A DNA stretch of 62,378 nucleotides from a virus: positions 1 to 62,378 of IMG/VR virus record IMGVR_UViG_3300033148_010415; one strand, given 5' to 3'. The notes under the pieces were generated by a model, which saw only the letters and a list, made by a program, of their open reading frames with translations, was not told the origin of the DNA and made no database searches. Positions within the stretch are counted from its first letter, which is position 1. Each line of letters opens with the position of its first letter. Shown in pieces: positions 1 to 62,378 of this stretch. The position numbers and the translations under genes are program-made.

Positions 1-57
1 AGCTTTATGATCTGCTTCATTGACATTACCATTCACTCTTTCTTTCATGGCTGTATT

Positions 58-79
58 GGGGCACAGCGCGCTGTGCCCC
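58..79. terminator. 22-bp perfect palindrome after the portal gene
   Basis: A perfect inverted repeat (GGGGCACAGCG and its complement) lies just beyond the stop codon of the minus-strand portal gene. A stem this strong could end the resident phage packaging transcript or be a protein-binding site. No clear U-tract follows on the minus strand, so the terminator reading is tentative. Confidence 0.4.
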
Positions 80-88
80 TGCGGAATG

Positions 89-2080
89 TCACACCCCCGC
101 AACCCCGGCATTCCCGGCATAATCGGGCTGAGGGGATGCAAAAGCCTTCCCTGACCTGGCCATGTACTCCAGGTGCTCCTGCACGTGCCGCTCGAGCAGC
201 AGTTCCACTTCGGGATGCCGGGCCGCGATCTGCTCCACCTCGTAGAGCTTGCGGTGGTGATTGTGGAGTCTCAGGTGCACCTCGTGGTTGTCGAAGGGAC
301 GCACGCGAACCAGCCTCCCCTCCACCATGGCCTTGTTCTCGCGCTGGGCGTTGGACTCATCCAGCCTGTCGTCGCTGTAGATGTCCTCCACGATGGTGTC
401 CTCCAGCATCTTGAGAACCTTTTTCCGCACATCAGGCTCTGAGGGCGGGCCGTAGAGCCCGAGGCGATAGCGGTCCTTGATCTCCTGGTGCCGCGTGACC
501 TTGAGTTGGGGCAGGGCGGAGCCGATGTTGACGAACACATCGTGGTTTCCCCTGAGGTCGGCTCCGATGAAGTCCCGCACGTCGGGCCGCCGCTCGTTGC
601 CCGCCACTTTGAGGGTCCGCGTCTCGGTGTAGTGCTGCTCCACGATCTCCAGCATCCGCTTTCCCACCTGGGAGAGGGCGTGGGTGATATCGGTAAAGAT
701 CGCCCCCAGGGTGGTCTCGTCCTGCTCGATGAGCTGCTCGATGGCGATCCCGGAGCGCACTCCCACCGGTGCGAAAGCCTGGGAGACCTCGTGCTGGCTC
801 CAGATGTCCATCATTGTCTCGCGGATATTTTCCAGCTCTTTCCACACGTCCGAGGGCAGCGGGTGCAACTGCATCTGGAACGGCGGCCCGCCCATCGGGT
901 TGTACTGGATAATCTCGGCGTGCTCCGAGGTGAACGCGCTCTTGCGCACCTCTGCCGTGGTGGGGATGAGGATCTTCCCCTTTTTCATGGTCTCTCTATG
1001 CTCTATGACCTGGGAGAGTATCTTGTTCCATTCTTTCTGCAGGGGAATGGCGCTCACGATGGGCGACTCCCCCCAGAACCGCCCTGGGAGGCGAATGCGG
1101 CGGATGCGCACCAGGTCGTATCGGCCGAAGGGCAGGGAGGCATTCCTTAAAAGCACGCCGTTGGCCGCGGTGATCAAACGGCCTCCGGGGTACCGGGCCG
1201 AGGGGCGCTCCCGCATTTCCTTCACCACCGCGTATTGTGCCGCGTCGTTGGTGGTTGCGCCGGAGAGCCGTTCCCGGCCCAACAGATACCCCGGGTGCCC
1301 TGTGGCGGGGCCTGGTGTAACGTCCTCTGCGCCGACCTTTTCTCCGGCTGCGGGATAATCCGTGCGGATATCTTCCAGCGTGCGCACCCTGGCATTGATT
1401 ATCCAGGGCTGCCCCTCCAGATCAACACAACGGGCACTGGCAGGAAAAACCTCGAAGGGGCTCAGCACCTGGCAGTTCACCTCTCCCAGGTTGAATTCGT
1501 CCACCGTCGGCAGTCCCGTCTCATCCAATATCGGACTCTCCACCAATTCCTCACCCGTCCGGTTCCCCTGCTCGTCCAATACCGGGATACTCACCGTTTC
1601 CATCCGGGGTTTCCGGATGCGCTCCCCGGCGCGGGGGTCCCACCCCACCTGGAAGAAAACCGTGCCCACCCCTGCCAGCCACTCCCGGGCCTCCAGGTAT
1701 TTGCGTCCCATGTCCAGGGACCTCCACAGGTACTGGAGCACCATCTCAGCCACACGGGCCGCCGAGACATCCTCGTCGTCGTTGGTGTTCTGCACCACGT
1801 TGAAAATAGGGTCGTTGCGGCCCAGTCTGGCCACCTCGCGGTTCCAGTACGGCAGGATAATGTTGCTCACATGGCGAACCCGGTGGGGCACCGGCCGCAG
1901 CTCCTCCAGCCGCTGGGTGGCCCGGTTCCAGAATGCGTAGTGATGCCCCTCCAGAAAGGCCAGGTTCAGATGCCACTGCTGTTCATAGGGAAGCCGCTCT
2001 TGCCTGGCCCGGTGGAATCTCTCCTCCACCAGTGCCACCAGCTCTTTTTCCGTGGGTGTGCCTTCTTTGCTTTTCATCAT
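89..2080 (-). CDS. Portal protein of the resident (interrupted) phage
   Basis: A 663-residue protein resembling P22-type portal proteins, the ring at the capsid vertex through which DNA is packaged and ejected. The N-terminal part (about residues 15-130) has the charged helical start and the NIILPYWNREVARLGRNDP segment typical of such portals; the C-terminal 150 residues are charged and helical. It follows TerL and a small membrane protein on the same strand, the usual terminase-portal order. The start codon follows an A/G-rich stretch on the minus strand. Base composition is clearly GC-richer than the inserted phage. The family call is from overall pattern, so the exact portal subfamily is uncertain. 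Confidence 0.75.
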   Translation of the reverse strand: MMKSKEGTPTEKELVALVEERFHRARQERLPYEQQWHLNLAFLEGHHYAFWNRATQRLEELRPVPHRVRHVSNIILPYWNREVARLGRNDPIFNVVQNTNDDEDVSAARVAEMVLQYLWRSLDMGRKYLEAREWLAGVGTVFFQVGWDPRAGERIRKPRMETVSIPVLDEQGNRTGEELVESPILDETGLPTVDEFNLGEVNCQVLSPFEVFPASARCVDLEGQPWIINARVRTLEDIRTDYPAAGEKVGAEDVTPGPATGHPGYLLGRERLSGATTNDAAQYAVVKEMRERPSARYPGGRLITAANGVLLRNASLPFGRYDLVRIRRIRLPGRFWGESPIVSAIPLQKEWNKILSQVIEHRETMKKGKILIPTTAEVRKSAFTSEHAEIIQYNPMGGPPFQMQLHPLPSDVWKELENIRETMMDIWSQHEVSQAFAPVGVRSGIAIEQLIEQDETTLGAIFTDITHALSQVGKRMLEIVEQHYTETRTLKVAGNERRPDVRDFIGADLRGNHDVFVNIGSALPQLKVTRHQEIKDRYRLGLYGPPSEPDVRKKVLKMLEDTIVEDIYSDDRLDESNAQRENKAMVEGRLVRVRPFDNHEVHLRLHNHHRKLYEVEQIAARHPEVELLLERHVQEHLEYMARSGKAFASPQPDYAGNAGVAGV

Positions 2081-2163
2081 TTTAATTTCTCTTTTTTACG
2101 CGGCACGGTCATCATGCCCATGATGGCCATGCCAGGGTTTCAGATCACAGCTTAATACTACTT

Positions 2164-2442
2164 TTACTCGGCCGGGATATGTTGCACCGTTCCGGCTATG
2201 CCGTCATCTTCCAGGGGGTCATACTCCTCCTCTACCGCAGCCTCGGGCGTCTGCTGACCCGGCGTTGACAGGCAGAAACGGGTATAATCCACCGCCATGA
2301 TGCGATCCAGCAGCCGGGCGCGTTCCCGGGCCCATCCCCTGCGCTCCCCGGCGGCTCGCTCCCGCTCGCGGACCAGAAGGCCCAGAAGACACAGCCCGAT
2401 AACAGACAATGAGCCAATCGCCACAATCATAGCTTCCTGCAT
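2164..2442 (-). CDS. Small single-span membrane protein of the resident phage
   Basis: A 92-residue protein with one N-terminal hydrophobic segment (about residues 5-24, IVAIGSLSVIGLCLLGLLV) followed by a very charged arginine/glutamate stretch and an acidic C-terminus. Its ATG overlaps the stop of the terminase fragment (TAATG), so translation is likely coupled. I do not recognise a family. Small membrane proteins between terminase and portal exist in several phages without an assigned role. Confidence 0.6.
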   Translation of the reverse strand: MQEAMIVAIGSLSVIGLCLLGLLVRERERAAGERRGWARERARLLDRIMAVDYTRFCLSTPGQQTPEAAVEEEYDPLEDDGIAGTVQHIPAE

Positions 2443-2875
2443 TAGATAATCCCTCCCATATGATCATCCATCACCCCGACTTTCTGAGCGGCAAGCTCAT
2501 CGGGGTGCCCTCGAGCTTTTTGCTGCAGAGTAAGATATTCGGGTTTTTCCTTTTCCAGGGGGCCGGGTCGGCTAGCCAAAAAATACCGAAGGGCATCCAG
2601 CGCGTGGTCGTCCACGCCCAGAGGCTCCTCCGGCTGGTTCCTGGCCCCCATCTCCGCGCTCTGGAGTTGCCTCCACCGATACCGGGGAAACTCTCGGATA
2701 AGGTTCTCGCATGAGCCGAAAACGAAAAGCCTCGGAGATCCCTTCTCCCCCGTCAGGGGATGAATGCGCTCCGGGTCCACCCGCAGGTATTCACCCACAC
2801 GGTTGATTCCAGCCCTGAGTCCGTTGGCGGCGGGCACGGTATCGATCCCGTGATCCAGGTACTCGGCCACCACAG
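2442..2875 (-). pseudogene. C-terminal part of the resident phage TerL, cut off by the prophage
   Basis: This frame encodes the end of a terminase large subunit: AEYLDHGIDTVPAANG, then GINRVGEYL, a conserved stretch near the end of the nuclease domain, and a closing segment GVDDHALDALRYFLASRP that is typical of TerL C-termini. The homologous part starts at 2875. The open frame runs on to 3044 through inserted-phage DNA, giving unrelated residues. The N-terminal half is at 60847-61816. Both halves share CTGTGGTGG (minus strand) in the same codon phase, so excision would restore a continuous gene. Any protein made from this fragment alone would lack the ATPase. Confidence 0.85.
2867..2875. other. 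attL core (CCACCACAG)
   Basis: Nine bases are identical to the right junction at 60847-60855, and TGTA four bases beyond also matches (2879-2882 and 60859-60862). On the minus strand the core encodes the VV of the TerL motif GYSSVV in the right half and sits in the same reading phase in the left half, so it is the most economical crossover site. A competing 7-bp match (AAAACAT at 2913 and 60815) does not restore the terminase. Confidence 0.75.
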
Positions 2876-2913
2876 CAATGTACCCCTTTTCCAGGAGGTT
2901 CAAAGAAATTACA

Positions 2914-3020
2914 AAACATCGATGTTTACATGATTCTCGAAAAACGTCGGGGTAAAATCCGGAGTAAATTATTACGATTTTGCAGCGTTTTGAAAATGTT
3001 TTTACCCCGGATTTTACCCC
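2914..3020. promoter_or_regulatory. Left integrase arm-site region: palindrome and inverted repeats
   Basis: Three elements lie just inside the left junction: a 14-bp perfect palindrome AAACATCGATGTTT (2914-2927) and a pair of 20-bp inverted repeats (2949-2968 and 3001-3020, 19 of 20 positions complementary) built around TTTACCCC-GGATTT-ACCCC. A close relative of this 20-mer lies at the right end (60765-60784). Repeats of this type at both ends of a prophage are typical arm-type binding sites for a tyrosine integrase or excisionase. No protein-binding data can be read from sequence. Confidence 0.6.
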
Positions 3021-3034
3021 AAAGGTGATTGCGA

Positions 3035-3253
3035 ATGAGGCCACGATATAACTCCGAAAAGATGATTAAAGAGCAGGGAGGAATTATCAAGCAGACAAGC
3101 ACATCCCAGCCAAACAGATGTGGAATTTGCGGTGGACCCATTCTGACGGCATCCATCTGGACGGCAGAAAGGGGGTATGTGCATATAAACGAAAAGGATT
3201 GCCTGAAACAGAAGTACAAGGTTTTGGATGAAGACGACGGGTATTGCGATTGA
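3035..3253 (+). CDS. Small zinc-binding phage protein
   Basis: A 72-residue protein with a C-G-I-C motif near the middle and two later cysteines, suggesting a small zinc ribbon. ATG 3035 is preferred over an upstream TTG because AAAGGTG lies eight bases before it. It is the first gene inside the left junction and overlaps the terminase-fragment frame on the other strand. The function is unknown. Confidence 0.5.
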   Translation: MRPRYNSEKMIKEQGGIIKQTSTSQPNRCGICGGPILTASIWTAERGYVHINEKDCLKQKYKVLDEDDGYCD

Positions 3254-3712: not shown

Positions 3713-4480
3713 TTGTTACACAAATTTAAAAGAGATTCAAGATATAGCAGAAACGGTAAGGGAGTCCGGATGGCATACGATAGAATCGCTTCGTCATACG
3801 ATCTCCATTATCGAGACAATTTCTCAGTTGCAGAAAACGCTGTTATCAAACAATATCTTGCCAGAAAGGGTTTTACCAATGGTAGGGTCCTGGATTTGGG
3901 ATGTGGAACCGGCCTGTTGATAACAATGTTCAATATCCCTCCGACCTATTACGCCGGCCTGGATGTTTCAGAAGGGATGTTGACCGTGGCTCGGAGGAAG
4001 TTTCCGAATCATCACTTCGTGCAGGCGAGTATGGATAACATCCCTTTTGGAGATGCGGAATTCGACCGGGTGATATGTCTGTTCGGCGGTATAAGCTATG
4101 TGAAATCGCATCATCTCAGCGCTACGATCCGTGAGATATTTCGAGTCCTGCGTGCCGGCGGAAGGCTGTTTATCATGGCGTATGGGAAAGCTCATTACTG
4201 CAAAAAAGAAGATTATATTTTACATGATCAGAAAATAGAGAGGCATCTTTTCACGAACAGAGAATTATTTGACCTGGTTTTTCCTTTATTCCCAGTATCA
4301 AAGGTCATTGGGATGAATTCAGCGGTTGAGTTATATCGTCGGGCTTCTCTATCAATTAAATCCTTAATGTTTCTTATGCAAGCCGAGATTGATACTGTGG
4401 GCCATGAGATACCGGATTTTTGCCAATATCAAATAGCGATAGGAGAAAAGATAATTGGGGAAACGAGTTTTAAACATTAA
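3713..4480 (+). CDS. Class I SAM-dependent methyltransferase
   Basis: A 255-residue protein with the Rossmann motif I VLDLGCGTG (about residues 60-68), motif II LDVSEGM, and a FRVLRAGGRLFI stretch typical of the small-molecule/UbiE-like methyltransferase fold. No catalytic NPPY motif is visible, so it is not an obvious DNA N6-methyltransferase. TTG 3713 is chosen because AGGAGGT ends five bases before it. It overlaps the following PAPS-reductase-like gene by 26 bases, suggesting they work together. The substrate is unknown. Confidence 0.75.
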   Translation: MLHKFKRDSRYSRNGKGVRMAYDRIASSYDLHYRDNFSVAENAVIKQYLARKGFTNGRVLDLGCGTGLLITMFNIPPTYYAGLDVSEGMLTVARRKFPNHHFVQASMDNIPFGDAEFDRVICLFGGISYVKSHHLSATIREIFRVLRAGGRLFIMAYGKAHYCKKEDYILHDQKIERHLFTNRELFDLVFPLFPVSKVIGMNSAVELYRRASLSIKSLMFLMQAEIDTVGHEIPDFCQYQIAIGEKIIGETSFKH

Positions 4481-5603
4481 CGTATTTGATGCTGCAATAG
4501 ACAGGTTGATCAGGTTATATCGAGACGGCCATAGGGTCGTTGTTTCTTTTTCCGCAGGTAAAGACTCCGGAATATGCTTGGAGCTTGCCATTATAGCAGC
4601 CAGTGTAATGGAAAAGCTTCCAGTGGATGTAGTCATGCGGGATGAGGAGATCATGTATCCAGGAACATTCGAGTATGCTGAAAGAATGGCGAAACGCCCG
4701 GAAGTGAAATTTCACTGGATGATAGCCAATCAACCTGTAGTTAATTGTTTTAACCGTAAACAACCGTACTTTTGGGTGTTTGATCCTCTCCTAAAACCGG
4801 AGCAATGGGTCCGTCAGCCGCCGGATTTCGCAGTCCATATCGAAGAGAAATGTATTGAGGGAATGATTACAAAAGAGCGGTTTCCCCCCGATCCTGGAAA
4901 AGAGCTTATAACTATTATCGGACTTCGGACTCAGGAAAGTATGCTGAGAAGATTAGGGGTTTTCTCTTCTCAGGGATACATTACAAAATCTAACCGATAC
5001 GGCTGCCGATATGCCCGGCCTATCTATGACTGGTCTGATGGAGATGTATGGAAAGCGGTTTGGGATAACAAATGGGACTACAATGAGGCTTACGATGTTA
5101 TGCACCGCCTAGGGGTTCATAGAAACAGGCTCAGGATCGCTCCCCCGACCCTGACAGCTGCAGGAATCGATGAGTTGAAAATAGCCTCCCAGGCATGGCC
5201 GAAGTGGTTCGACAAGGTTTGCGAACGGCTCCCTGGAGTGAGAACGGCAGCCATGTTCGGACGGCGGGCCGTAGAACCGAATCGAAGGCTCGGGGAGACC
5301 TGGGAGCAAGTCTTTAAGCGCGAATGCTTGGAAGAAGCACCGGATTGGATCAGGGAGAGGGCTCAAAGAGTTATGGGAAGAGCATTGCAGGAGCATAATC
5401 GGCATTCTACCCATCCCTTTCCGCAAAGCGATAAATGTAATAGATGCCAAATGATTGGTTCCTGGAAGCATCTGGCAAAGATCATGTATATGGGAGATCC
5501 TTTCGCGATGAAAACGAGCGGGGGTTCTGGAAGGCTAACAGCTATTGAACCCGAATTTTTCAGACCAGGAGCAGGAACATGGGGAGGGAAACCAACATGG
5601 TGA
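4455..5603 (+). CDS. PAPS-reductase / ATP-pyrophosphatase-like protein (IbrA/DndC-like)
   Basis: The N-terminus has the PP-loop signature SFSAGKDSG (residues 29-37) of the adenine-nucleotide alpha-hydrolase family, which includes PAPS reductase, DndC and IbrA. The C-terminal region has conserved cysteines (CNRC near residue 345), possibly an iron-sulfur or zinc site. TTG 4455 lies eight bases after AGGAGA. Phages often encode this protein beside a ParB-like protein, as here, an arrangement like IbrA/IbrB. The chemistry (sulfur transfer, nucleotide activation or regulation) is not established. Confidence 0.8.
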   Translation: MGKRVLNINVFDAAIDRLIRLYRDGHRVVVSFSAGKDSGICLELAIIAASVMEKLPVDVVMRDEEIMYPGTFEYAERMAKRPEVKFHWMIANQPVVNCFNRKQPYFWVFDPLLKPEQWVRQPPDFAVHIEEKCIEGMITKERFPPDPGKELITIIGLRTQESMLRRLGVFSSQGYITKSNRYGCRYARPIYDWSDGDVWKAVWDNKWDYNEAYDVMHRLGVHRNRLRIAPPTLTAAGIDELKIASQAWPKWFDKVCERLPGVRTAAMFGRRAVEPNRRLGETWEQVFKRECLEEAPDWIRERAQRVMGRALQEHNRHSTHPFPQSDKCNRCQMIGSWKHLAKIMYMGDPFAMKTSGGSGRLTAIEPEFFRPGAGTWGGKPTW

Positions 5604-5902
5604 AACCGAAAAAAAGAGAAATACAAAGAGTTAGAAATTATATCGCATCCGTACATTGGAAATTCGCCAAGACTTACGCAAAAACATGGCCTCACGAATA
5701 TACGGTAAAGGACTGGAACCCTGATAAAAAAAAAGAATTTGAATTTTTTGTCATGTTTATTCGAGAGTATGGTTATCCTGAGATGTTTTTCAGAAAACAC
5801 CATATTTACTATAACTTAGATGGATATAAATACTGGACAATGGGAGCACCGTTGGAGCAAACCATCATCATAAACAGGGTAGTATTAGAGGAGGTAAGAT
5901 GA
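5597..5902 (+). CDS. Conserved small partner of the PAPS-reductase-like / ParB-like pair
   Basis: A 101-residue protein from ATG 5597 (GGGGAGGG lies eight bases upstream). It has conserved-looking blocks: ASVHWKFAKTYAKTWPHEYT near the start and DGYKYWTMGAP near the end, rich in aromatic residues. It overlaps the gene before it and shares ATGA with the gene after it. I recognise its position between PAPS-reductase-like and ParB-like genes rather than a named fold. Confidence 0.6.
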   Translation: MVKPKKREIQRVRNYIASVHWKFAKTYAKTWPHEYTVKDWNPDKKKEFEFFVMFIREYGYPEMFFRKHHIYYNLDGYKYWTMGAPLEQTIIINRVVLEEVR

Positions 5903-6714
5903 AAGATAAAGGCCGTAAAGCAATTGAGAAAAAGAACCAGGTACTGGAGAAATTGAGTATTGAGTATGTCCCTGTAAATTCCATTCAACCGAACAAGTAC
6001 AATCCTAATCGCCAGAGTGAACATGATTTTGAGCTTCTCTTAAGGTCCATGCGCGAAGATGGATTTACTCAGCCTATTGTCTGTCAAAAAAAGACGAGAG
6101 AGATCGTAGATGGGGAGCATCGATGGCGCGCAGCGATGGAATTAGGATTCAAAGAAATCCCGGTGGTTTTTGTGGATATGACGCCGGAGCAAATGAGGAT
6201 TTCCACACTCCGGCATAACCGGGCCAGAGGTTCGGAGGATATTGAACTATCGGCACAGGTCTTAAGAGACCTTCAGCAGTTAGGAGCACTTGACTGGGCT
6301 CAGGATTCGCTGATGATAACGGATACGGAACTGAACCGTCTCCTGGAAGATATTTCAGCACCTGAAGCCCTTGCTGGAGAGGAATTCTCGCAAGCCTGGC
6401 TACCGGATAACGTAAATCAAGAGGATATAGAGGGGATCGAATCAAGAACGGTATCCGATGTATCCAGCGAATCGACAGTTGAAACTTTCATGTCTAAAGA
6501 TGCAATCATGAAAGCCAGGGAGCGGGAAAAGCAAATCAAAGAAGCCAAAACCCTGGAAGAACGTGAGATGGCTCAAAAAGATCGATCCCTTTACCGGATT
6601 TCACTTATTTTTTCAGGGGACGAGGCGGATATGGTTAAATCCGTATTAGGAAAGGCTCCTGCGGATAAAATCCTAACGTGGTGCAAACAAGAATATAAGG
6701 CGAAGAATAATTAA
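5899..6714 (+). CDS. ParB/sulfiredoxin-domain protein (IbrB-like)
   Basis: Residues 20-120 form a ParB N-terminal domain: VNSIQPNKYNPNRQ, then EDGFTQPIVC and the signature DGEHRWRAA. The remainder is helical and charged. The ParB fold binds or hydrolyses nucleotides (CTPase in chromosomal ParB, nuclease or kinase-like in others). Its tight coupling to the PAPS-reductase-like gene matches IbrA/IbrB-type pairs. It may act on DNA or regulate its partner; no partner ParA is present, so plasmid-type partition is unlikely. Confidence 0.8.
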   Translation: MKDKGRKAIEKKNQVLEKLSIEYVPVNSIQPNKYNPNRQSEHDFELLLRSMREDGFTQPIVCQKKTREIVDGEHRWRAAMELGFKEIPVVFVDMTPEQMRISTLRHNRARGSEDIELSAQVLRDLQQLGALDWAQDSLMITDTELNRLLEDISAPEALAGEEFSQAWLPDNVNQEDIEGIESRTVSDVSSESTVETFMSKDAIMKAREREKQIKEAKTLEEREMAQKDRSLYRISLIFSGDEADMVKSVLGKAPADKILTWCKQEYKAKNN

Positions 6715-7388
6715 TGGAACCCTGGGAACGACAAAAGGGAGAGCGGTCAAGAGCTTATAGCGCATTCGTATATTACCGCGATATGGGCCCCAAACGAAGC
6801 CTTAAAAAAATGGCTACTGAAACAGGTCGGTCTCTTTTCCCTTTACAGCGATTTTCAAAAAAATACAACTGGGTAGCCCGTGCAACCGCCTGGGATGAAG
6901 AAGTAGATCGTCGCCGGCGGGAAGCGCAGATAAAAGAAATTGAAGAAATGAGCAAACGCCAAGCCCAGCAGGCTCAAGCGATAAACCAAGCTATCATGAT
7001 TCCGGTGATGGCCTTCTTGGAACGCTTGAAAAAGTCTCAGAGGGAAAAAGGCGCTGAAGCAATAGACAGCTTGATGAATATGCTGGGAACATCTGATTTG
7101 CTCGATCTGGTTATTAAGATAGGTCATGTCTGGCCTCATATAATGAGGGCCGAACGGCTTGCACGAGGAGAATCCACGGAAGCCGTCGAACAAAAAGTAT
7201 CTGCAAAAATACGGGTAGTGGAGGAAGAGATTGCCTTTCAACGTCTTATCAGAGACGAGGATAGCAGGCAGTTGCTATGCGAAGTTTACAGACGAATTGT
7301 TGAGTGCGAGGATGATGCCCGCAGGACTGGCTCGTTTAGCCAGTCGGAAAACATGGCAACTTCCGAGGCATCTATCAGCACTGAATAA
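6714..7388 (+). CDS. Terminase small subunit
   Basis: A 224-residue protein with an N-terminal helix-turn-helix region (YRDMGPKRSLKKMATETG, then FSKKYNWVARATAWDEE) followed by a long helical segment, the usual layout of small terminase DNA-recognition subunits. It directly precedes the large terminase. The ATG overlaps the ParB-like stop (TAATG). Confidence 0.75.
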   Translation: MEPWERQKGERSRAYSAFVYYRDMGPKRSLKKMATETGRSLFPLQRFSKKYNWVARATAWDEEVDRRRREAQIKEIEEMSKRQAQQAQAINQAIMIPVMAFLERLKKSQREKGAEAIDSLMNMLGTSDLLDLVIKIGHVWPHIMRAERLARGESTEAVEQKVSAKIRVVEEEIAFQRLIRDEDSRQLLCEVYRRIVECEDDARRTGSFSQSENMATSEASISTE

Positions 7389-8661
7389 CTTTTTACTGGC
7401 AGCATCTGAAGGGATAATCAAGAGGTTAATGATCTTTATACCTCCAAGGCACGGGAAATCGGAGTTCATATCCAAATACTTCCCGGCCTGGTATATCGGT
7501 AAATATCCTGATCGCAGGATTATCCTTACAAGTTATGAAGCGGCTATTGCATCATCCTGGGGCCGGAAGGCCAGGGATATTCTTTTAGAGTATGGAGAGC
7601 AAGTATTCGACATGAAGGTTACCCAGGATGTAAAAGCCTCGAACTGGTGGGAAACTCGAAACGGCGGCGGTATGATGACAGCGGGTTCTTTAGGGCCTAT
7701 TACCGGTAAGGGAGCCAATTTATTCATTATTGATGACCCCATCAAGAATTTCCAGGAAGCATTAAGTTCCACGCATCGGGAAAACCTTTGGGAATGGTAT
7801 AGATCAACAGCGTATACGCGGCTGGAACCTGGTGCTTCCCTGATAATTGCGATGGCAAGGTGGGATCGTGATGATATCGCAGGAAGGATTTTAAAAGAAA
7901 TCGGTGATAATTGGGTGATATTGAAGTTACCGGCTATCGCTACAAGGCATGAAAAAGAGACCGGACGTAAACCCGGAGATCCGCTTTGGCCCGAAAGGTT
8001 CCCACTTCAAACTCTTAACGAAATTAAAAATCAGGTGCAAACGTATTGGTGGGAAGCATTATATCAACAAAGCCCGCTTGAGCGAAGGGGAACAGGGATT
8101 TTTCAGCCCCAATGGTTTGAAATCATTGACCCTGGCAATGTATCAACCAGCTTGACCAAGGTCCGTTATTGGGATTTAGCAGCGACACCGGCAAGCGATG
8201 GGGAGGACCCTGATTGGACCGTAGGGGTACTAATGGGTATCAGGAATAATATCTATTATGTACTGGATATTCGGAGAGACAGAAATACTCCGGCACGGAT
8301 AGAAGCTTTAGTAAGAAAAACAGCGGAAATAGACGGTACATCTGTACGTATTTTTATGGAGCAGGAACCCGGAGCAAGCGGTGTCAATACTATCGATCAT
8401 TACAGACGTAATATTCTGCAAGGATTCAGTTTCCGGGGAGATAAAGTATCAGGCTCGAAAATATTAAGAGCTATGCCGTTCAGCGCAGCAGCCGAAGCTG
8501 GACGGATTAAATTAGTCAAAGCTTCTTGGAATAAAGATTTTCTTGAGGAATTAACCAATTTCTCAGGAAACGAGACTGAACATGATGATCAGGTTGATGC
8601 TGCTTGCGGTGCTTTTGAAAAACTATCAACTCCGAAAAATCTATTTGTATGGGGGAGATAA
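7231..8661 (+). CDS. Terminase large subunit (TerL) of the inserted phage
   Basis: Packaging motor ATPase and nuclease. The Walker A-like motif PPRHGKSE is near residue 70, Walker B LFIIDDP near residue 165, and the C-terminal nuclease domain shows YWDLAATPAS with later EQEPGASG and DDQVDA. TTG 7231 has GGAGG six bases upstream; ATG 7312 is an alternative. The start lies 158 bases inside the small-subunit gene, an unusually long overlap. This TerL is unrelated in sequence to the resident phage TerL that the prophage interrupts. Confidence 0.9.
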   Translation: MPFNVLSETRIAGSCYAKFTDELLSARMMPAGLARLASRKTWQLPRHLSALNNFLLAASEGIIKRLMIFIPPRHGKSEFISKYFPAWYIGKYPDRRIILTSYEAAIASSWGRKARDILLEYGEQVFDMKVTQDVKASNWWETRNGGGMMTAGSLGPITGKGANLFIIDDPIKNFQEALSSTHRENLWEWYRSTAYTRLEPGASLIIAMARWDRDDIAGRILKEIGDNWVILKLPAIATRHEKETGRKPGDPLWPERFPLQTLNEIKNQVQTYWWEALYQQSPLERRGTGIFQPQWFEIIDPGNVSTSLTKVRYWDLAATPASDGEDPDWTVGVLMGIRNNIYYVLDIRRDRNTPARIEALVRKTAEIDGTSVRIFMEQEPGASGVNTIDHYRRNILQGFSFRGDKVSGSKILRAMPFSAAAEAGRIKLVKASWNKDFLEELTNFSGNETEHDDQVDAACGAFEKLSTPKNLFVWGR

Positions 8662-53901: not shown

Positions 53902-54443
53902 AATGGGTGAGTGTTACGGAATGTCTCTCGATTTTGAGACGGTTCGAGGGGATTCCCGATCGAATATTAATACAGGCTGCTGAAGAGGGGACGCAGGTAC
54001 ATAAATACTGTCTAGCCTATGCAAAAGGGTTGTATCTGCCCCCTCCGGCAGAACTTGCCCTAGCTATCGGAGGTTTTAAACGCTGGTTCAATACCGCAGT
54101 CGATCAGGTTCTATGTGTAGAGGAGCAATTAGAAGATCAGAATCTCTGTTTGACAGGTCGTCTTGATCTTATAGCAAAGCTTAAGGGTGAGCGGCTGTAT
54201 AGCGTGATAGACCTCAAACGGGCTTCCGCAGACTGGATTGTAGGGCTCCAACTTGCAGCATATGAACATCTGGCATCCAAGCGATTCGAGCGGAAATTCG
54301 GTCCGCGTTATGCCCTTCTGATCGGTAAGGATGGCTCCACGAGAATGATACCGTTTCAAGACCCGAATGACTTTCCAGTATTTCTAGGCATTCTATCTGC
54401 TTATAACCATTCAAGAAAGAGCTTTGAACAGGAGGCGATATGA
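53898..54443 (+). CDS. PD-(D/E)XK nuclease (RecB/Cas4-like)
   Basis: 181 residues. CLTGRLDLIAKLKGERLYSVIDLKRAS has the R-x-D...D-x-K core; LQLAAYEHLA matches the later Q-x3-Y motif. These nucleases resect DNA ends for annealing. Neighbours support a recombination module. Confidence 0.75.
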   Translation: MKWVSVTECLSILRRFEGIPDRILIQAAEEGTQVHKYCLAYAKGLYLPPPAELALAIGGFKRWFNTAVDQVLCVEEQLEDQNLCLTGRLDLIAKLKGERLYSVIDLKRASADWIVGLQLAAYEHLASKRFERKFGPRYALLIGKDGSTRMIPFQDPNDFPVFLGILSAYNHSRKSFEQEAI

Positions 54444-55108
54444 ATATCATCGCATTGGCGGAAAAGAAAAGTATGATCGAGCATGATCCCGAGGTGATGA
54501 GCGCCACGGAGATCATCTCGGCCATTGCTCGGACGAAAGTTCTAACTATTAAGGATGACGGCCAAGAAAAGCAATATTCCGAGATGTTGATCCAGGCCAA
54601 AAGCGTTGAGAAAGCGCTGGATACAAGACGCCGTCATTACACGGACCCGCTCAATCAGGAGGTCAAGGCAATTAAGGCCATGTTCGACCAATTGGCCCAC
54701 CCGGTCAAAAAGAAGGTTATCGAGATTGAGGGTGTGATCCGCAAGTGGCGCATCCACAAGGCGGAAGAGGAACGCAAGGCCCGGGAGCGGGCGGAGCGAG
54801 AGCAGGCCCGTATCCGGGCCCGGCTTGAGAAACAGGGTATGACCGAGGTCCCGGTTCCGACCATCGTCACACCAAGGCGGGAGACGATAACCCGGACCGA
54901 GAGCGGCGCTATTCATGAACGCAAGACGTGGAAGGTAGAGGTGGAAGATATCCGCGTCTTAGCCCGGGCTGTCGCGGATGGGCAAATACCTCCCCATTGC
55001 ATCCAGCCCGTTATCAGCAACTTGCAAGCCTTGGCACGCCAAGGAGTAACGAACATCCCAGGTTGCAAAGTCTGGCAAGAGACTTCGATCAGTACAAGGA
55101 GTGCATAA
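54440..55108 (+). CDS. Coiled-coil protein of the recombination region
   Basis: 222 residues. A long helical, charged middle (RKWRIHKAEEERKARERAER) and IPGCKVWQE near the end. It resembles phage proteins found beside annealing proteins, but no catalytic motif is visible. Confidence 0.5.
   Translation: MNIIALAEKKSMIEHDPEVMSATEIISAIARTKVLTIKDDGQEKQYSEMLIQAKSVEKALDTRRRHYTDPLNQEVKAIKAMFDQLAHPVKKKVIEIEGVIRKWRIHKAEEERKARERAEREQARIRARLEKQGMTEVPVPTIVTPRRETITRTESGAIHERKTWKVEVEDIRVLARAVADGQIPPHCIQPVISNLQALARQGVTNIPGCKVWQETSISTRSA
55094..55104. repeat. 11-bp direct repeat, left copy, framing the tRNA
   Basis: ACAAGGAGTGC, identical to 55235-55245. Each copy contains AAGGAG. The segment between holds the whole tRNA-like gene. 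Confidence 0.8.
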
Positions 55109-55115
55109 ATGATAT

Positions 55116-55224
55116 GCCAGCGGCGGCGTGGTGGGAACACCGGGGGAGTTGCTAACTCCGGACCTCCTGCTCGTGGTACCGGAGACCAGACGAGCAAACC
55201 AGGTTCAAATCCTGGCCGCTGGCA
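55116..55224 (+). tRNA. Serine-type tRNA, anticodon GCU, with unusual acceptor
   Basis: GCCAGCGG (55116) pairs with CCGCTGGC (55216), giving an 8-bp acceptor if A224 is the discriminator. The T arm is CCAGG-TTCAAAT-CCTGG (55199-55215) with no gap to the acceptor. The anticodon loop is TTGCTAA (anticodon GCT at 55151). A long variable arm (TGCTCG...CGAGCA) marks a type II serine tRNA. The D-stem is weak and the anticodon stem has about four pairs. No CCA is encoded. The 13-bp acceptor-T stack resembles selenocysteine or allo-tRNA forms. Confidence 0.7.
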
Positions 55225-55234
55225 TTTAAATATC

Positions 55235-55245
55235 ACAAGGAGTGC
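55235..55245. repeat. 11-bp direct repeat, right copy, framing the tRNA
   Basis: Identical to 55094-55104, 141 bp apart. It supplies the ribosome site for the following gene, as the left copy might have done before tRNA insertion. Confidence 0.8.
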
Positions 55246-55248
55246 GTG

Positions 55249-55437
55249 ATGTCTGTTGACCTTCGCTTAGAAATTGAAAGGGCTATAGGGTGCGACAAGA
55301 ATGATTTTACCCCAGAGCATCTCCAGCTATTACTCATTATCGCAAAGGGGATGCTCTGGACTCGCGTGTTGTACTTAAAAGCACAGCTATTGGCCGAGGA
55401 AATCAAGGAAGACATGCGGATTTTTGAATTTAAATAG
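55249..55437 (+). CDS. Small helical early protein
   Basis: 62 residues, mostly helical (VLYLKAQLLAEEIKEDMRIF). Ribosome site AAGGAG is the right-hand repeat. Unknown function. Confidence 0.45.
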   Translation: MSVDLRLEIERAIGCDKNDFTPEHLQLLLIIAKGMLWTRVLYLKAQLLAEEIKEDMRIFEFK

Positions 55438-55448
55438 GAGGTATCAAA

Positions 55449-56786
55449 ATGGAAGATCAAAGTTATCCGGCTCCGATTGGCCCAGGGGGAATTGAATTAA
55501 TAAATCAAGGTAAAACGCTAACAAAAATAGAGGCGGGATATCAGACGGCTATCGCTGTACAGAGGCCAAGAAAGTTAAAAGAAGTTACCGAAAGATGTTT
55601 ATCCGAAGCGGATATAGCAGGCGAAGCGTTTTACTGGACCTGGCAGGTCTGGGACAATAAAGAGAAAAAATATAAGACGGTTGAGGGACCCAGCATCGAT
55701 CTGGCCATGACCGTTGCTCGGAATTTTGGCAACTGTGCAGTTCCGACCGAAGTTGTGGAAATAGAAGGCGAATGGATATTTCGGGCTGCTTTCGTGGATT
55801 TAGAAACAGGATTTACTTTTCAACGAGTCTATCGAGTACCCAAGTCCGAAGCTCCCGGAAAATTTGATCAGGACCGCTGGGATGATATGACTTTTCAGAG
55901 AGCACAATCTAAGGCTCAGCGAAACGTCATCATCAAGGGCGCTCCCCCGTGGCTTATACAACAGACCATGGATAGGGCCAAAGAAGCGGCGTTGAAAGGC
56001 ATCGGCAAGATGGGCAAGGAAACGGCGAAAACAAAAGTACTCCAGTTTTTCATGCGCTATCAAGTCACAAAGGAAATGCTTGAAAAGCTCATGGATGAAT
56101 CGATAGGCAATTGGACAGAAGAAACACTAATGAAACTACGAGGTATAGCGCGAACTCTTCAAGATGGACAGGAGACCGTTGAGACGATCTTCGGTCATGC
56201 TAAATCGGAATTTGACGAAGGCGAAAAAACAATATTAGTAGCCGCTTTCTGGTCAATACTAAACGAGTCCGCCGGTATCAAGCCTGATGACGAGCAAATG
56301 CTCGCATACATCAAAGAAACCGCTCAATTTGTTGACAATAAAAACTATATCGAGGGCGAATCGGAAAAGAAGTTGATGGCTGATTTAAGTAAAGCTTTCC
56401 AGGCAGATCCATCGCAGGTTGAGTTGTTCGTAAAAGCATTTCGGTTGAAACATCAAAATGAGACCGAATCAAAACCAGAGGAACACTCAACACCCAAACG
56501 TGGCCGTAAAAAGCAAGAAACCCCCGAACCTCCGCAAGAAACACAGTCCGAATCAATAGATGAGGAAAAGAACGCCCAGGCTCATGAGTTCGTTGAACGC
56601 ATTCGTCCAGACCTCCGGGAGCACATTAAGGAAAAGCTCCCGTACTATAACGATGATCAGATCATGCTAATGATGAGTAGCAAAGGCATGCTCTATCCGG
56701 AGAAAATGACGGAAAAACAGATAATGGATATCATGACATATGTCAATGAGCTCTATCACCAGAGGAATATACCTGATGACGATTAA
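55449..56786 (+). CDS. Phage recombination-associated protein
   Basis: 445 residues. The N-terminal 200 have a conserved phage pattern: TKIEAGYQTAIAVQRPRKL, IAGEAFYWTWQVWDN, EGPSIDLAMTVARNFGN, and FQRAQSKAQRNVI. Proteins of this type occur with DNA recombination genes and may be single-strand binding or annealing proteins. The C-terminus is helical with a Lys/Glu-rich linker (KRGRKKQE). Confidence 0.6.
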   Translation: MEDQSYPAPIGPGGIELINQGKTLTKIEAGYQTAIAVQRPRKLKEVTERCLSEADIAGEAFYWTWQVWDNKEKKYKTVEGPSIDLAMTVARNFGNCAVPTEVVEIEGEWIFRAAFVDLETGFTFQRVYRVPKSEAPGKFDQDRWDDMTFQRAQSKAQRNVIIKGAPPWLIQQTMDRAKEAALKGIGKMGKETAKTKVLQFFMRYQVTKEMLEKLMDESIGNWTEETLMKLRGIARTLQDGQETVETIFGHAKSEFDEGEKTILVAAFWSILNESAGIKPDDEQMLAYIKETAQFVDNKNYIEGESEKKLMADLSKAFQADPSQVELFVKAFRLKHQNETESKPEEHSTPKRGRKKQETPEPPQETQSESIDEEKNAQAHEFVERIRPDLREHIKEKLPYYNDDQIMLMMSSKGMLYPEKMTEKQIMDIMTYVNELYHQRNIPDDD

Positions 56787-59610: not shown

Positions 59611-59927
59611 CCATCCTTACCCCTCAAGAAGTAGCAAGCATGTTGAACAAATCCACCCGATGGGTTTATATTCATGCCGGTGATCTGGGAGCGGCCCGGA
59701 TTGGAGGCTCATGGATTTTCACACAGGAGGGGTTAAAAAATGCCATACAGAGAGGGCAAGAGATGGCGCGGATGCGTGATGCACGCCGGACGGCGGTATC
59801 AAAAGCTGTTTCAGTCAAAGAAAGAAGCCCTGGCTTGGGAGTACGAGAAACGGAAAGAGATGATGTCAGGGACAGAAAAAAAAGAGACCGTCATAACATT
59901 GTTCGAGTTGTGCGACCGGTACCTTGA
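59607..59927 (+). CDS. Excisionase (HTH_17 family)
   Basis: 106 residues. ILTPQEVASMLNKSTRWVYIHAGDLGAARIGGSWIF is the winged-helix pattern of excisionases. The frame extends 188 bases into the integrase gene, giving a basic arginine-rich tail; it may be real coding in two frames or read-through of a shorter ancestral stop. Confidence 0.75.
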   Translation: MTILTPQEVASMLNKSTRWVYIHAGDLGAARIGGSWIFTQEGLKNAIQRGQEMARMRDARRTAVSKAVSVKERSPGLGVRETERDDVRDRKKRDRHNIVRVVRPVP

Positions 59928-60807
59928 TTATGCTGAAAGGTTTCATAAGAGGACATATAGTCAGAAGCGTCTGGTATGTAGAAAAATTATAGCAGAATGG
60001 GAGCCGGATCGCGAGGCTGACAGTATAACACCGGCGATGGTCTTGGAATATTTGGATAGACAAGCCAGGGAGAGGACGATCTGTGCATCGAACATGGACC
60101 GAAAAGAACTGATGGCCTTGTGGCGCTGGGGAGCTGAGTTCTGTGGACTAAAACATAATCCCATAGCCATGGTAAAGCCGAGAGCTTATGAAAGGATACC
60201 TCAATATACGCCGCCGCAAGAGGATGTTCTGAAAGTCCTTGCCGTGGCCACCAGGGAGGAAGGGGTTTTTCTCGATGCGTATTTGCAGACGGGCGCGAGG
60301 AAATCGGAGATATTCAGGTGGACTTGGATTGAGGATGTCAATTTCGAGAGACGAGAGGTTCGACTGGGCACGAGGAAAACTAAGGATGGTTCGATGGAAT
60401 ACGAATGGATACCGATGAGCGATAGTTTGTTCAAATCCCTGATGTGGTGGTGGCAAAACCGGCCTGTCAAGGATTCACCTTATGTATTTTGCAGGATTGG
60501 AGCAACCGACAGGGGAGAGCCTTTTACTGTGAGAAGGAATTTCCTGAAAAGATTGTGCTTGAGGGCGGGAGTTAAGGCATTTGGGTATCATGCCCTCAGG
60601 CGTTACGTGGCCTCTGTTCTGGCGGATACCCATAAGGTGAGCGCTAAGACGATTCAACGTATTCTCAGGCATAAGAACGTGAGCACGACTGAGAGATATA
60701 TCCAAAACATCAACAAGGATTTGCAGGCCATTATCAATTTGCTTTCAAGGGAAAATAAAACTGATTTACCCCTGGATTTACCCCAGAGCAAAAGGGATGA
60801 TGTTTAA
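59740..60807 (+). CDS. Tyrosine integrase
   Basis: 355 residues. N-terminal arm-binding region (PYREGKRWRGCVMHAGRRYQ), core-binding region, then catalytic residues Arg in TGARKSEIFRW, His and Arg in HALRRY, His in RHKN, and Tyr in TERY. CAGGAGGGG lies eight bases before ATG 59740. The gene ends beside attR. Confidence 0.9.
   Translation: MPYREGKRWRGCVMHAGRRYQKLFQSKKEALAWEYEKRKEMMSGTEKKETVITLFELCDRYLDYAERFHKRTYSQKRLVCRKIIAEWEPDREADSITPAMVLEYLDRQARERTICASNMDRKELMALWRWGAEFCGLKHNPIAMVKPRAYERIPQYTPPQEDVLKVLAVATREEGVFLDAYLQTGARKSEIFRWTWIEDVNFERREVRLGTRKTKDGSMEYEWIPMSDSLFKSLMWWWQNRPVKDSPYVFCRIGATDRGEPFTVRRNFLKRLCLRAGVKAFGYHALRRYVASVLADTHKVSAKTIQRILRHKNVSTTERYIQNINKDLQAIINLLSRENKTDLPLDLPQSKRDDV
60765..60784. 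promoter_or_regulatory. Right integrase arm site
   Basis: TTTACCCC-TGGATTT-ACCCC, a near copy of the left arm sites (3001-3020 and the inverted 2949-2968). It lies within the last codons of the integrase. Confidence 0.6.
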
Positions 60808-60846
60808 CTATTTGAAAACATTAACATATTTTTTTGATGTCATGCT

Positions 60847-60855
60847 CCACCACAG
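60847..60855. other. attR core (CCACCACAG)
   Basis: Identical to attL. To the right the terminase N-terminal half begins; to the left phage DNA supplies the last codons and stop of the truncated TerL. Confidence 0.75.
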
Positions 60856-61816
60856 AGCTGTATCCAAGGGCGGAGGATTGCCTGGCGGACGGGTCGATCA
60901 CGGTATAGACGTAGCGTTCGGCTCCGGACATTTCAGAGACGGCACGGGCGTTTTCGCTGACAATTCGTCCGGCCCGGTAATATTCCCGGTACACGAATAC
61001 GTTCCCGTCGGTATCCAGCGCAAACCAGAGACAGCATGTAGGGTTGGTCCGGCCGGGATCGATGGATCGATATCGCGGCCATCCCTCAGGGATGCGGAAC
61101 GGCTGGATCACATGGACCCCGGGGTCGAACCCGCCGTAAATCTGTCCCTCGAACACATCCCAGGAGCCATACACATAGCGCCGGACCCAGACCTCCGGGT
61201 AACTGCGCATAAGCATGGGCACATAGTCCGGGGGCAGATGGGGATTCTCAAGGCTGGCGGCCTGCACCATATGATACTCCGGGTTGCCTTCTTTTATGAA
61301 GCGCCGCCAGATCCAGTTGTGGCCCTCGGGATTGCCCGTCAAAAAGCCCTGACGCACAGGTACGCCCTCCAGACGCAAACGGCTCTGAAGGATCAAAAAC
61401 ATATTCTCTGAGATCTCCTCCGCCTGATCCACATAAAACCACCCTAAGTTCAGGCTGAGCAGGTCCGAGGGCGTGTCCAGATGGCGGAAGAGAATCTCGG
61501 ATCCATTGGAAAAGCGCAGCAGGTTCTCAACTTTATTGAACTTGCTCACGAGGGGGTGTGCGGCGACGATGTCCTCATTGCACCCGAGCAGTTCGAAGAA
61601 TGTTTTCCGGGTTGTCGCCCTCAACTGCGGCTGGGATAGGCGACCCATGACCCCCACGTTGCCCGGATGCTCCATGCTTAACCGCAACGCCTTGATGCAC
61701 CCCGCCAGGGTCTTGCCGTTTCCGAAGCCCCCGAAAAAAGCGCAAAACCGGGCATTGCTGAAGACGAACTCATCCTGTTGCGGAAGCAGTCGAATTTCCA
61801 TGACCTCGTATTGCAT
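60847..61816 (-). pseudogene. N-terminal part of the resident phage TerL, cut off by the prophage
   Basis: ATPase region of a terminase: GGFGNGKTLAGC (Walker A-type), LGWFYVDQAEEIS (Walker B), ILQSRLRLEGVPVRQGFLTGNPEG and the start of the nuclease domain (YRSIDPGRTNPTCCLW). Homology ends in GYSSVV at the core; phage DNA then adds about nine codons and a stop. ATG 61801 is a possible alternative start. Confidence 0.9.
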
Positions 61817-61919
61817 TTCGTAATTGAAGTTTGAAATCTTGATAAGATGACAGGAGTGAGAAAATCAAGTTGACCCTGTTATCCCTTCGAAACTCTCTCT
61901 GTTTTTAAGGAACGTAACA

Positions 61920-62378
61920 TTACGTCTCCATGCGACCGGGTCGTATTATTACCACCGGGCTGCCCGGGCCTTCGGGCTCATCACCCCGGGGCCGGATATC
62001 CCCGGCCAGCTCAAGATACAGCTTGATGTGCTGGAAGCTTCCCTTTAGGGCCTCCCGGATCAGGGCGCGCCAGACCGCGGCGCGTGCCTCTCCCCGCCGC
62101 TTCACAAGCTCGGCATCGACTTCCGTCTGGAAGTCGGGCTCATCCATCCAGGCCCGAACATCCTCCTCAGAGACCCCCAGACCCCTGATCAGGTCGGCAT
62201 CCAGTCGAACCTCCAGCGGGTTGGCCAGCGCCCGGATCAGTCGTTCCCGCGCTTTCATCCACCGATCAGGCGGGTCAGCTTTCTGCGGGGATACATCCTG
62301 AATAGACAGGGAGGTCTGTTTCGCGCTGCCGGCCTCACTTGCATCGCCATGTCGATTTTGTGTCTGTTTCGGCTTCAT
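61920..62378 (-). CDS. Small terminase-like protein of the resident phage
   Basis: 152 residues starting at the window edge. An N-terminal basic region, then DLIRGLGVSEEDVRAWMDEP and AAVWRALIREALKGSFQHIKLYLELAGD, a helical pattern of small terminases. It precedes TerL as expected. Confidence 0.7.
   Translation of the reverse strand: MKPKQTQNRHGDASEAGSAKQTSLSIQDVSPQKADPPDRWMKARERLIRALANPLEVRLDADLIRGLGVSEEDVRAWMDEPDFQTEVDAELVKRRGEARAAVWRALIREALKGSFQHIKLYLELAGDIRPRGDEPEGPGSPVVIIRPGRMET

What the first reader, a model, noticed from the sequence alone, without database searches (positions are those of the whole stretch)
55094..55245. Unusual serine-type tRNA framed by 11-bp direct repeats
The acceptor (8 bp) plus T-stem (5 bp) stack, long variable arm, weak D-stem and GCU anticodon depart from normal 7/5 tRNA design and recall selenocysteine-type or allo-tRNA shapes. 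The repeats ACAAGGAGTGC on both sides, each with a ribosome site, suggest the tRNA was inserted with target duplication.
Basis: partly seen in the sequence, partly recalled or inferred. Interest (0 to 1): 0.65.

Follow-up and report, generated by a model that had tools for sequence, protein, structure and literature searches.

The report
Selenocysteine-shaped serine-anticodon tRNA in a phage
A virus of bacteria carries one odd transfer-RNA gene that has the lengthened shape of selenocysteine tRNAs but an ordinary serine anticodon; it is clearly built like a tRNA and standard tRNA finders miss it, but no relative was found and nothing here shows that it works.

Summary
At 55116-55224 (+) an RNA folds as a cloverleaf with a 13-bp acceptor+T stack (8/5 or 9/4), canonical T-loop, UUGCUAA anticodon loop (GCU), 4-nt D-loop and very long variable arm. 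ARAGORN (default) and the Rfam tRNA model miss it; the Rfam selenocysteine-tRNA model finds it end to end (26.4 bits, E=0.0013 over all Rfam), below its 47-bit cut-off. A strict cloverleaf descriptor finds only this place, and none in 4555 simulated windows. It is tRNA-derived, but not tRNA-Sec (GCU, A73) nor a described allo-tRNA (13 bp, not 12). Best reading: a phage-borne serine-type tRNA in a Sec-like frame. Insertion with target duplication is only weakly supported: repeat copy 1 is the upstream gene's coding end, copy 2 the next gene's ribosome site, and three other pairs of AAGGAG sites here match over 11-12 bp. Distant relatives of the locus lack the tRNA, so it was probably gained, by an unknown route. 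No homologue was found; expression, charging and decoding are untested, and an odd 8-nt linker leaves a decaying or non-translational tRNA-like RNA possible.

The parts
55116..55224 (+). tRNA-like gene, GCU anticodon, 13-bp acceptor+T stack, type II (long variable arm), no encoded CCA
   Evidence: RF01852 match 26.4 bits; cloverleaf is MFE; descriptor test
55116..55123 (+). acceptor stem 5' strand GCCAGCGG (8 bp; the helix can extend to 11 bp from 55114 to 55124)
   Evidence: inverted repeat, 100% complementary
55216..55223 (+). acceptor stem 3' strand CCGCTGGC; 55224 A = likely discriminator (A73)
   Evidence: inverted repeat, sequence
55129..55142 (+). D-arm: TGGTG-GGAA-CACCG, 4-nt loop
   Evidence: pair probabilities about 1
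55145..55159 (+). anticodon arm GGAG-TTGCTAA-CTCC, anticodon GCT
   Evidence: pair probabilities about 1; the same loop in an ordinary viral tRNA-Ser(GCU), L005
55168..55196 (+). variable arm, 7 bp + 3 bp with a 2-nt bulge; preceded by 8 nt GGACCTCC
   Evidence: fold
55199..55215 (+). T-arm CCAGG-TTCAAAT-CCTGG
   Evidence: sequence; descriptor
55094..55104 (+). direct repeat copy 1 ACAAGGAGTGC, inside the last codons of the upstream gene (T-R-S-A-stop)
   Evidence: reading frame
55235..55245 (+). direct repeat copy 2 ACAAGGAGTGC, ribosome site of the 63-aa ORF
55049..55108 (+). extended, weak repeat with 55190-55249 (offset 141; 22 of 45 identical upstream of the 11-bp repeat)
54440..55108 (+). 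upstream gene (PHROG 10477 'exonuclease' group, weak match); C-terminus aligns with that of a Methanosarcina virus MetMV protein
55249..55437 (+). 63-aa ORF, no family found
55449..56786 (+). PHROG 3657 protein, in the place of the RecT gene of the relatives

Best explanation
A phage-borne, type II tRNA gene built on a selenocysteine-tRNA-like frame (13-bp acceptor+T stack, short D-loop, very long variable arm) but with a serine anticodon, transcribed as part of the phage's early recombination operon. Inferred mechanism: RNase P and 3' nucleases cut it from the operon transcript, the host adds CCA, host SerRS charges it through its long variable arm, and it reads AGC/AGU as serine during infection. 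Shown: the structure, its non-chance nature and its position. Inferred: transcription, processing, charging and decoding.
For: Only RF01852 recognises it among the tRNA models, over the full model. Descriptor significance 0 of 4555. Canonical T-loop and anticodon loop; MFE cloverleaf. Same strand as, and fitted between, two genes of a co-directional operon. GC 0.65 in a phage of 0.47, as is usual for structured RNA. AGC+AGT are about a third of the phage's serine codons. SerRS is reported to recognise 7/5, 8/5, 9/4 and 8/4 tRNAs (PMC7609411).
Against: No homologue and hence no covariation. Score far under the curated 47 bits. A73 and not G73. An 8-nt linker between anticodon stem and variable arm, 5 nt before the D-stem and a G-G opposition below a 4-bp anticodon stem are unlike known Sec or Ser tRNAs. 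The T-arm competes with an alternative helix. No encoded CCA. RF01852 is not specific: other viral tRNA-like places reach 37 bits with it.
Confidence: 0.5

Rival explanations
1. A decaying or rearranged tRNA (pseudo-tRNA), captured by the phage from a host Ser or Sec tRNA gene and now without function in translation.
For: Odd linkers, an anticodon stem of 4 bp, a competing fold, no relative, below all cut-offs.
Against: The main helices are perfect Watson-Crick, including 11 bp of closing stem and a T-arm without mismatch; decay should show in them too.
Confidence: 0.25
2. A tRNA-like element that acts in the operon message: a cut site for RNase P / 3' nucleases, or a structured spacer that separates the upstream gene from the RecT-place gene and keeps the latter's ribosome site free.
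For: It sits exactly between two genes of an operon; both sides carry AAGGAG sites; no promoter or terminator beyond chance.
Against: A full anticodon loop and T-loop would not be needed; phage tRNAs in operons are cut in the same way and are still tRNAs.
Confidence: 0.13
3. A true selenocysteine tRNA or a described allo-tRNA.
For: RF01852 match; long variable arm.
Against: Anticodon GCU, A73; 13 bp and not the 12 bp of allo-tRNAs (PMC7609411); score under cut-off.
Confidence: 0.05
4. Not tRNA-derived at all: a chance hairpin cluster, perhaps a diverged tandem duplication of the upstream gene's end (offset 141).
For: 55049-55093 resembles 55190-55234 at the same offset as the 11-bp repeat; about 0.1% of random pairs of phage windows reach this.
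Against: Descriptor test, Rfam match; the 5' part of the unit shows no such similarity (57-35 = 22 of 89, background).
Confidence: 0.07

Closest known systems
Bacterial selenocysteine tRNA (selC, Rfam RF01852)
   Same: 13-bp acceptor+T stack, 4-nt D-loop on a lengthened D-stem, very long variable arm; only this tRNA model finds it
   Different: Anticodon GCU for UCA, discriminator A for G, 4-bp anticodon stem, 8-nt linker before the variable arm, below the curated score
Allo-tRNAs (8/4 and 9/3; reviewed in PMC7609411)
   Same: tRNA-Sec-like outline with a sense anticodon and expected serine charging
   Different: Allo-tRNAs have a 12-bp acceptor domain, this one 13 bp; the review does not mention phages
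Ordinary viral tRNA-Ser(GCU), e.g. L005 3367-3456
   Same: Anticodon, anticodon loop TTGCTAA and T-loop GGTTCAAATCC
   Different: 7/5 frame, the stretch between anticodon loop and T-loop about 20 nt shorter, 56 bits with RF00005
selC* tRNA-Cys (PMC7609411)
   Same: Sec-like outline in a tRNA for another amino acid
   Different: U73, GCA or UCA anticodon, 8/4

Membership tests
tRNA-Sec | Match to RF01852 over the curated cut-off (47 bits) | tested here: not met
   26.4 bits, full length
tRNA-Sec | 13-bp acceptor+T stack (8/5 or 9/4) | tested here: met
   GCCAGCGG/CCGCTGGC + CCAGG/CCTGG, all Watson-Crick
tRNA-Sec | Six-bp D-stem with a 4-nt D-loop | tested here: inconclusive
   4-nt loop GGAA yes; stem 5 bp by folding
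tRNA-Sec | UCA anticodon and G73 | tested here: not met
   GCU; A at 55224
Allo-tRNA | 12-bp acceptor domain, 8/4 or 9/3 | tested here: not met
   13 bp
Allo-tRNA | Serine identity through the long variable arm | not testable with these tools
   variable arm present; charging needs an experiment
Canonical tRNA-Ser (7/5) | Found by ARAGORN and RF00005 | tested here: not met
Canonical tRNA-Ser (7/5) | Serine anticodon and long variable arm | tested here: met
   GCU; 29-nt arm
Insertion with target-site duplication | Direct repeats beyond what the sites' own function explains | tested here: inconclusive
   11 bp exact, 13 of 15; 4 of 253 AAGGAG pairs reach 11 bp
Insertion with target-site duplication | Single-copy empty site in a close relative | tested here: inconclusive
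   only distant relatives found; they lack the tRNA but differ in the next gene too

The most novel reading that the evidence does not exclude
A new class of virus-borne sense-decoding tRNAs with the 13-bp frame so far kept for selenocysteine, missed by routine annotation, that a phage brings to supply a host-charged serine tRNA (or one that resists tRNA-cutting defence) during infection.
Probability: 0.15. Interest if true: 0.75.

Novelty: new variant of a known kind. Interest (0 to 1): 0.42.

Why it matters
If it is charged and used, it would show that the 13-bp frame is open to sense decoding and that phages carry such tRNAs, which default tRNA finders overlook; viral genomes could then be rescanned with Sec-like models. 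It would also give a natural type II tRNA of unusual geometry for work on genetic-code expansion, where allo-tRNAs are already in use.

Tried and rejected
Relatives of the upstream protein, the RecT-place protein and DUF932 in IMG/VR: none or one distant. The single genome-contig scan gave only a chance hit, an HdrB-like gene, so the host is unknown. DNA similarity in phages and plasmids: nothing. Pattern TTGCTAA-(34..63)-GGTTCAAATCC in IMG/VR: 119 stretches, scan cut at its limit; after testing T-stem and acceptor pairing only ordinary tRNAs or chance remained. A covariance model of the element found nothing convincing elsewhere in 23 related or comparison records (one 15.9-bit match, E 0.18). 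A resemblance to the minus strand near 30.4 kb scored higher than that to the upstream gene; it has no tRNA features that I could see. The 46-aa ORF 55109-55249 through the tRNA was considered as a small gene: low-complexity R/G/P/S protein, no support. The constrained energy used an acceptor register off by one; one search replaces it. Rfam with 601 bases did not list the tRNA-Sec match, with 141 bases it did: a filter effect.

Full report
What is there. The window is a virus record of 62,378 bases. Between the gene at 54440-55108 and a 63-aa ORF at 55249-55437 lies a 140-base gap with a structured RNA. Its arms are an acceptor stem GCCAGCGG/CCGCTGGC (55116-55123/55216-55223), extendable to an 11-bp perfect inverted repeat, a D-hairpin with a GGAA loop, an anticodon hairpin GGAG-TTGCTAA-CTCC, a long variable hairpin and a T-arm CCAGG-TTCAAAT-CCTGG that abuts the acceptor strand. 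The 8/5 and 9/4 readings differ only in one C-G pair and cannot be told apart; both stack 13 bp. The cloverleaf is the minimum-free-energy structure and the stretch folds 4.5 standard deviations better than shuffles.

Is it more than chance? A descriptor made of an 8-bp Watson-Crick acceptor, a 5-bp T-stem, TTCRA in the T-loop and an anticodon-like hairpin finds this one place on both strands, and none in 4555 simulated windows (16 if G-T pairs are allowed). The descriptor was written after seeing the element, so the figure is somewhat flattering; the Rfam result is not open to this objection. The Rfam tRNA-Sec model matches from its first to its last position with E = 0.0013 over all families and 1.4e-4 for the record. 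The tRNA model finds nothing and ARAGORN with default settings finds nothing. The contrast with an ordinary viral tRNA-Ser(GCU), L005, is clean: 56.2 bits with the tRNA model, 13.7 bits with the Sec model. But the Sec model is not specific: other places in viral records, probably ordinary tRNAs, reach 37 bits. So the match says 'tRNA-like with a long acceptor domain', not 'selenocysteine'.

What kind of tRNA? Secmarker's description of tRNA-Sec (PMC5330540) lists a 13-bp acceptor+T stem, a very long variable arm, and a 6-bp D-stem with a 4-nt loop. The element meets the first two and half of the third. It fails UCA and G73. Allo-tRNAs (PMC7609411) have sense anticodons and serine identity but 12 bp (8/4, 9/3). 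The element therefore belongs to neither by tested features; it works, at best, like an allo-tRNA with a Sec-length frame. Unlike all of these it has 8 nt (GGACCTCC) between anticodon stem and variable arm, and this segment can pair with AGGTTC of the T-arm. This is the main reason for doubt about function.

The repeats. ACAAGGAGTGC occurs twice, 141 bases apart, 13 of 15 if extended to the stop codons TAA and TGA. Because 141 is 47 codons, both copies stand in the same frame; copy 1 codes the end T-R-S-A-stop of the upstream protein, copy 2 is the ribosome site of the next ORF. In Methanosarcina virus MetMV the homologous protein ends ...DTRFRT at the equivalent place, so copy 1 is the native gene end. 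But among 253 pairs of AAGGAG sites in the window four, this one included, match over 11 bp or more, so the repeat alone is weak evidence. Upstream of the 11 bp the two sides also resemble each other (22 of 45 without gaps, about 0.1% of random window pairs); this may be a faint trace of a longer duplication or a coincidence of the T-arm with the codons of a conserved I-P-G-C motif. It remains unexplained.

Relatives. Six loci with a related exonuclease gene were found; L168 is on the same IMG/VR contig as L047, whose upstream-gene stretch is identical to MetMV's. In MetMV, L167, L169 and L170 the homologue of the upstream gene follows, and in MetMV, L167, L169 and L170 the next gene (RecT or single-strand-binding type) starts within about 30 bases of its stop, without a tRNA; no tRNA or Sec-like match lies in the L167 and L169-L172 loci, and a model of the element finds no convincing second copy in the full records of 23 related or comparison viruses. 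The tRNA was thus probably gained in the lineage of this phage. These relatives are distant (28-39% protein identity), so they do not give the empty site itself.

How it most likely works. The element lies on the strand of its operon, and no promoter or terminator stands out. RNase P cleavage before 55116, 3' trimming and CCA addition by the host would give a 112-nt tRNA. The long arm would bring SerRS; A73 is unusual for serine and would rather suit LeuRS (from general knowledge), which is why charging must be tested. AGC and AGT make up about a third of the phage's serine codons, so a codon-supply role is possible but not argued for by any bias. I put a working serine tRNA at about one half, a decaying copy at a quarter, a message-processing element at one in eight.

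Limits. Absence of homologues here is therefore weak evidence of rarity.

Verdict. Observation confirmed; the Sec-like shape is supported; the insertion mechanism is unproven; function is untested.

Noticed in passing
window 60821-62378 (-) and 89-3044 (-): A terminase large-subunit gene seems split between the two ends of the window (N-part 60821-61816, C-part 2442-3044, same strand, with a small-terminase-like ORF before and a portal-like ORF after), while the phage in between has its own terminase (7231-8661), portal-like ORF and integrase (59740-60807). This looks like a phage integrated into the terminase gene of another prophage; satellites embedded in prophage late genes are known (PMC10111431). 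No att core of 10 bp or more was found at the junction itself.
   Followed up: partly
window 55049-55108 and 55190-55249: Weak extended direct repeat at offset 141, which aligns the coding end of the upstream gene with the T-arm and 3' acceptor strand of the tRNA.
   Followed up: partly
window 55109-55249: A 46-codon ORF starts right after the upstream stop (TAAATG), runs through the whole tRNA and ends at the TGATG of the next ORF.
   Followed up: no
window 55312-55359: A 13-bp imperfect inverted repeat CCAGAGCATCTCC/GGGGATGCTCTGG inside the 63-aa ORF.
   Followed up: no
window 4455-5603 and 5899-6714: A PAPS-reductase-like ORF next to a ParB-like ORF before the terminase genes (read by eye from the translations).
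   Followed up: no
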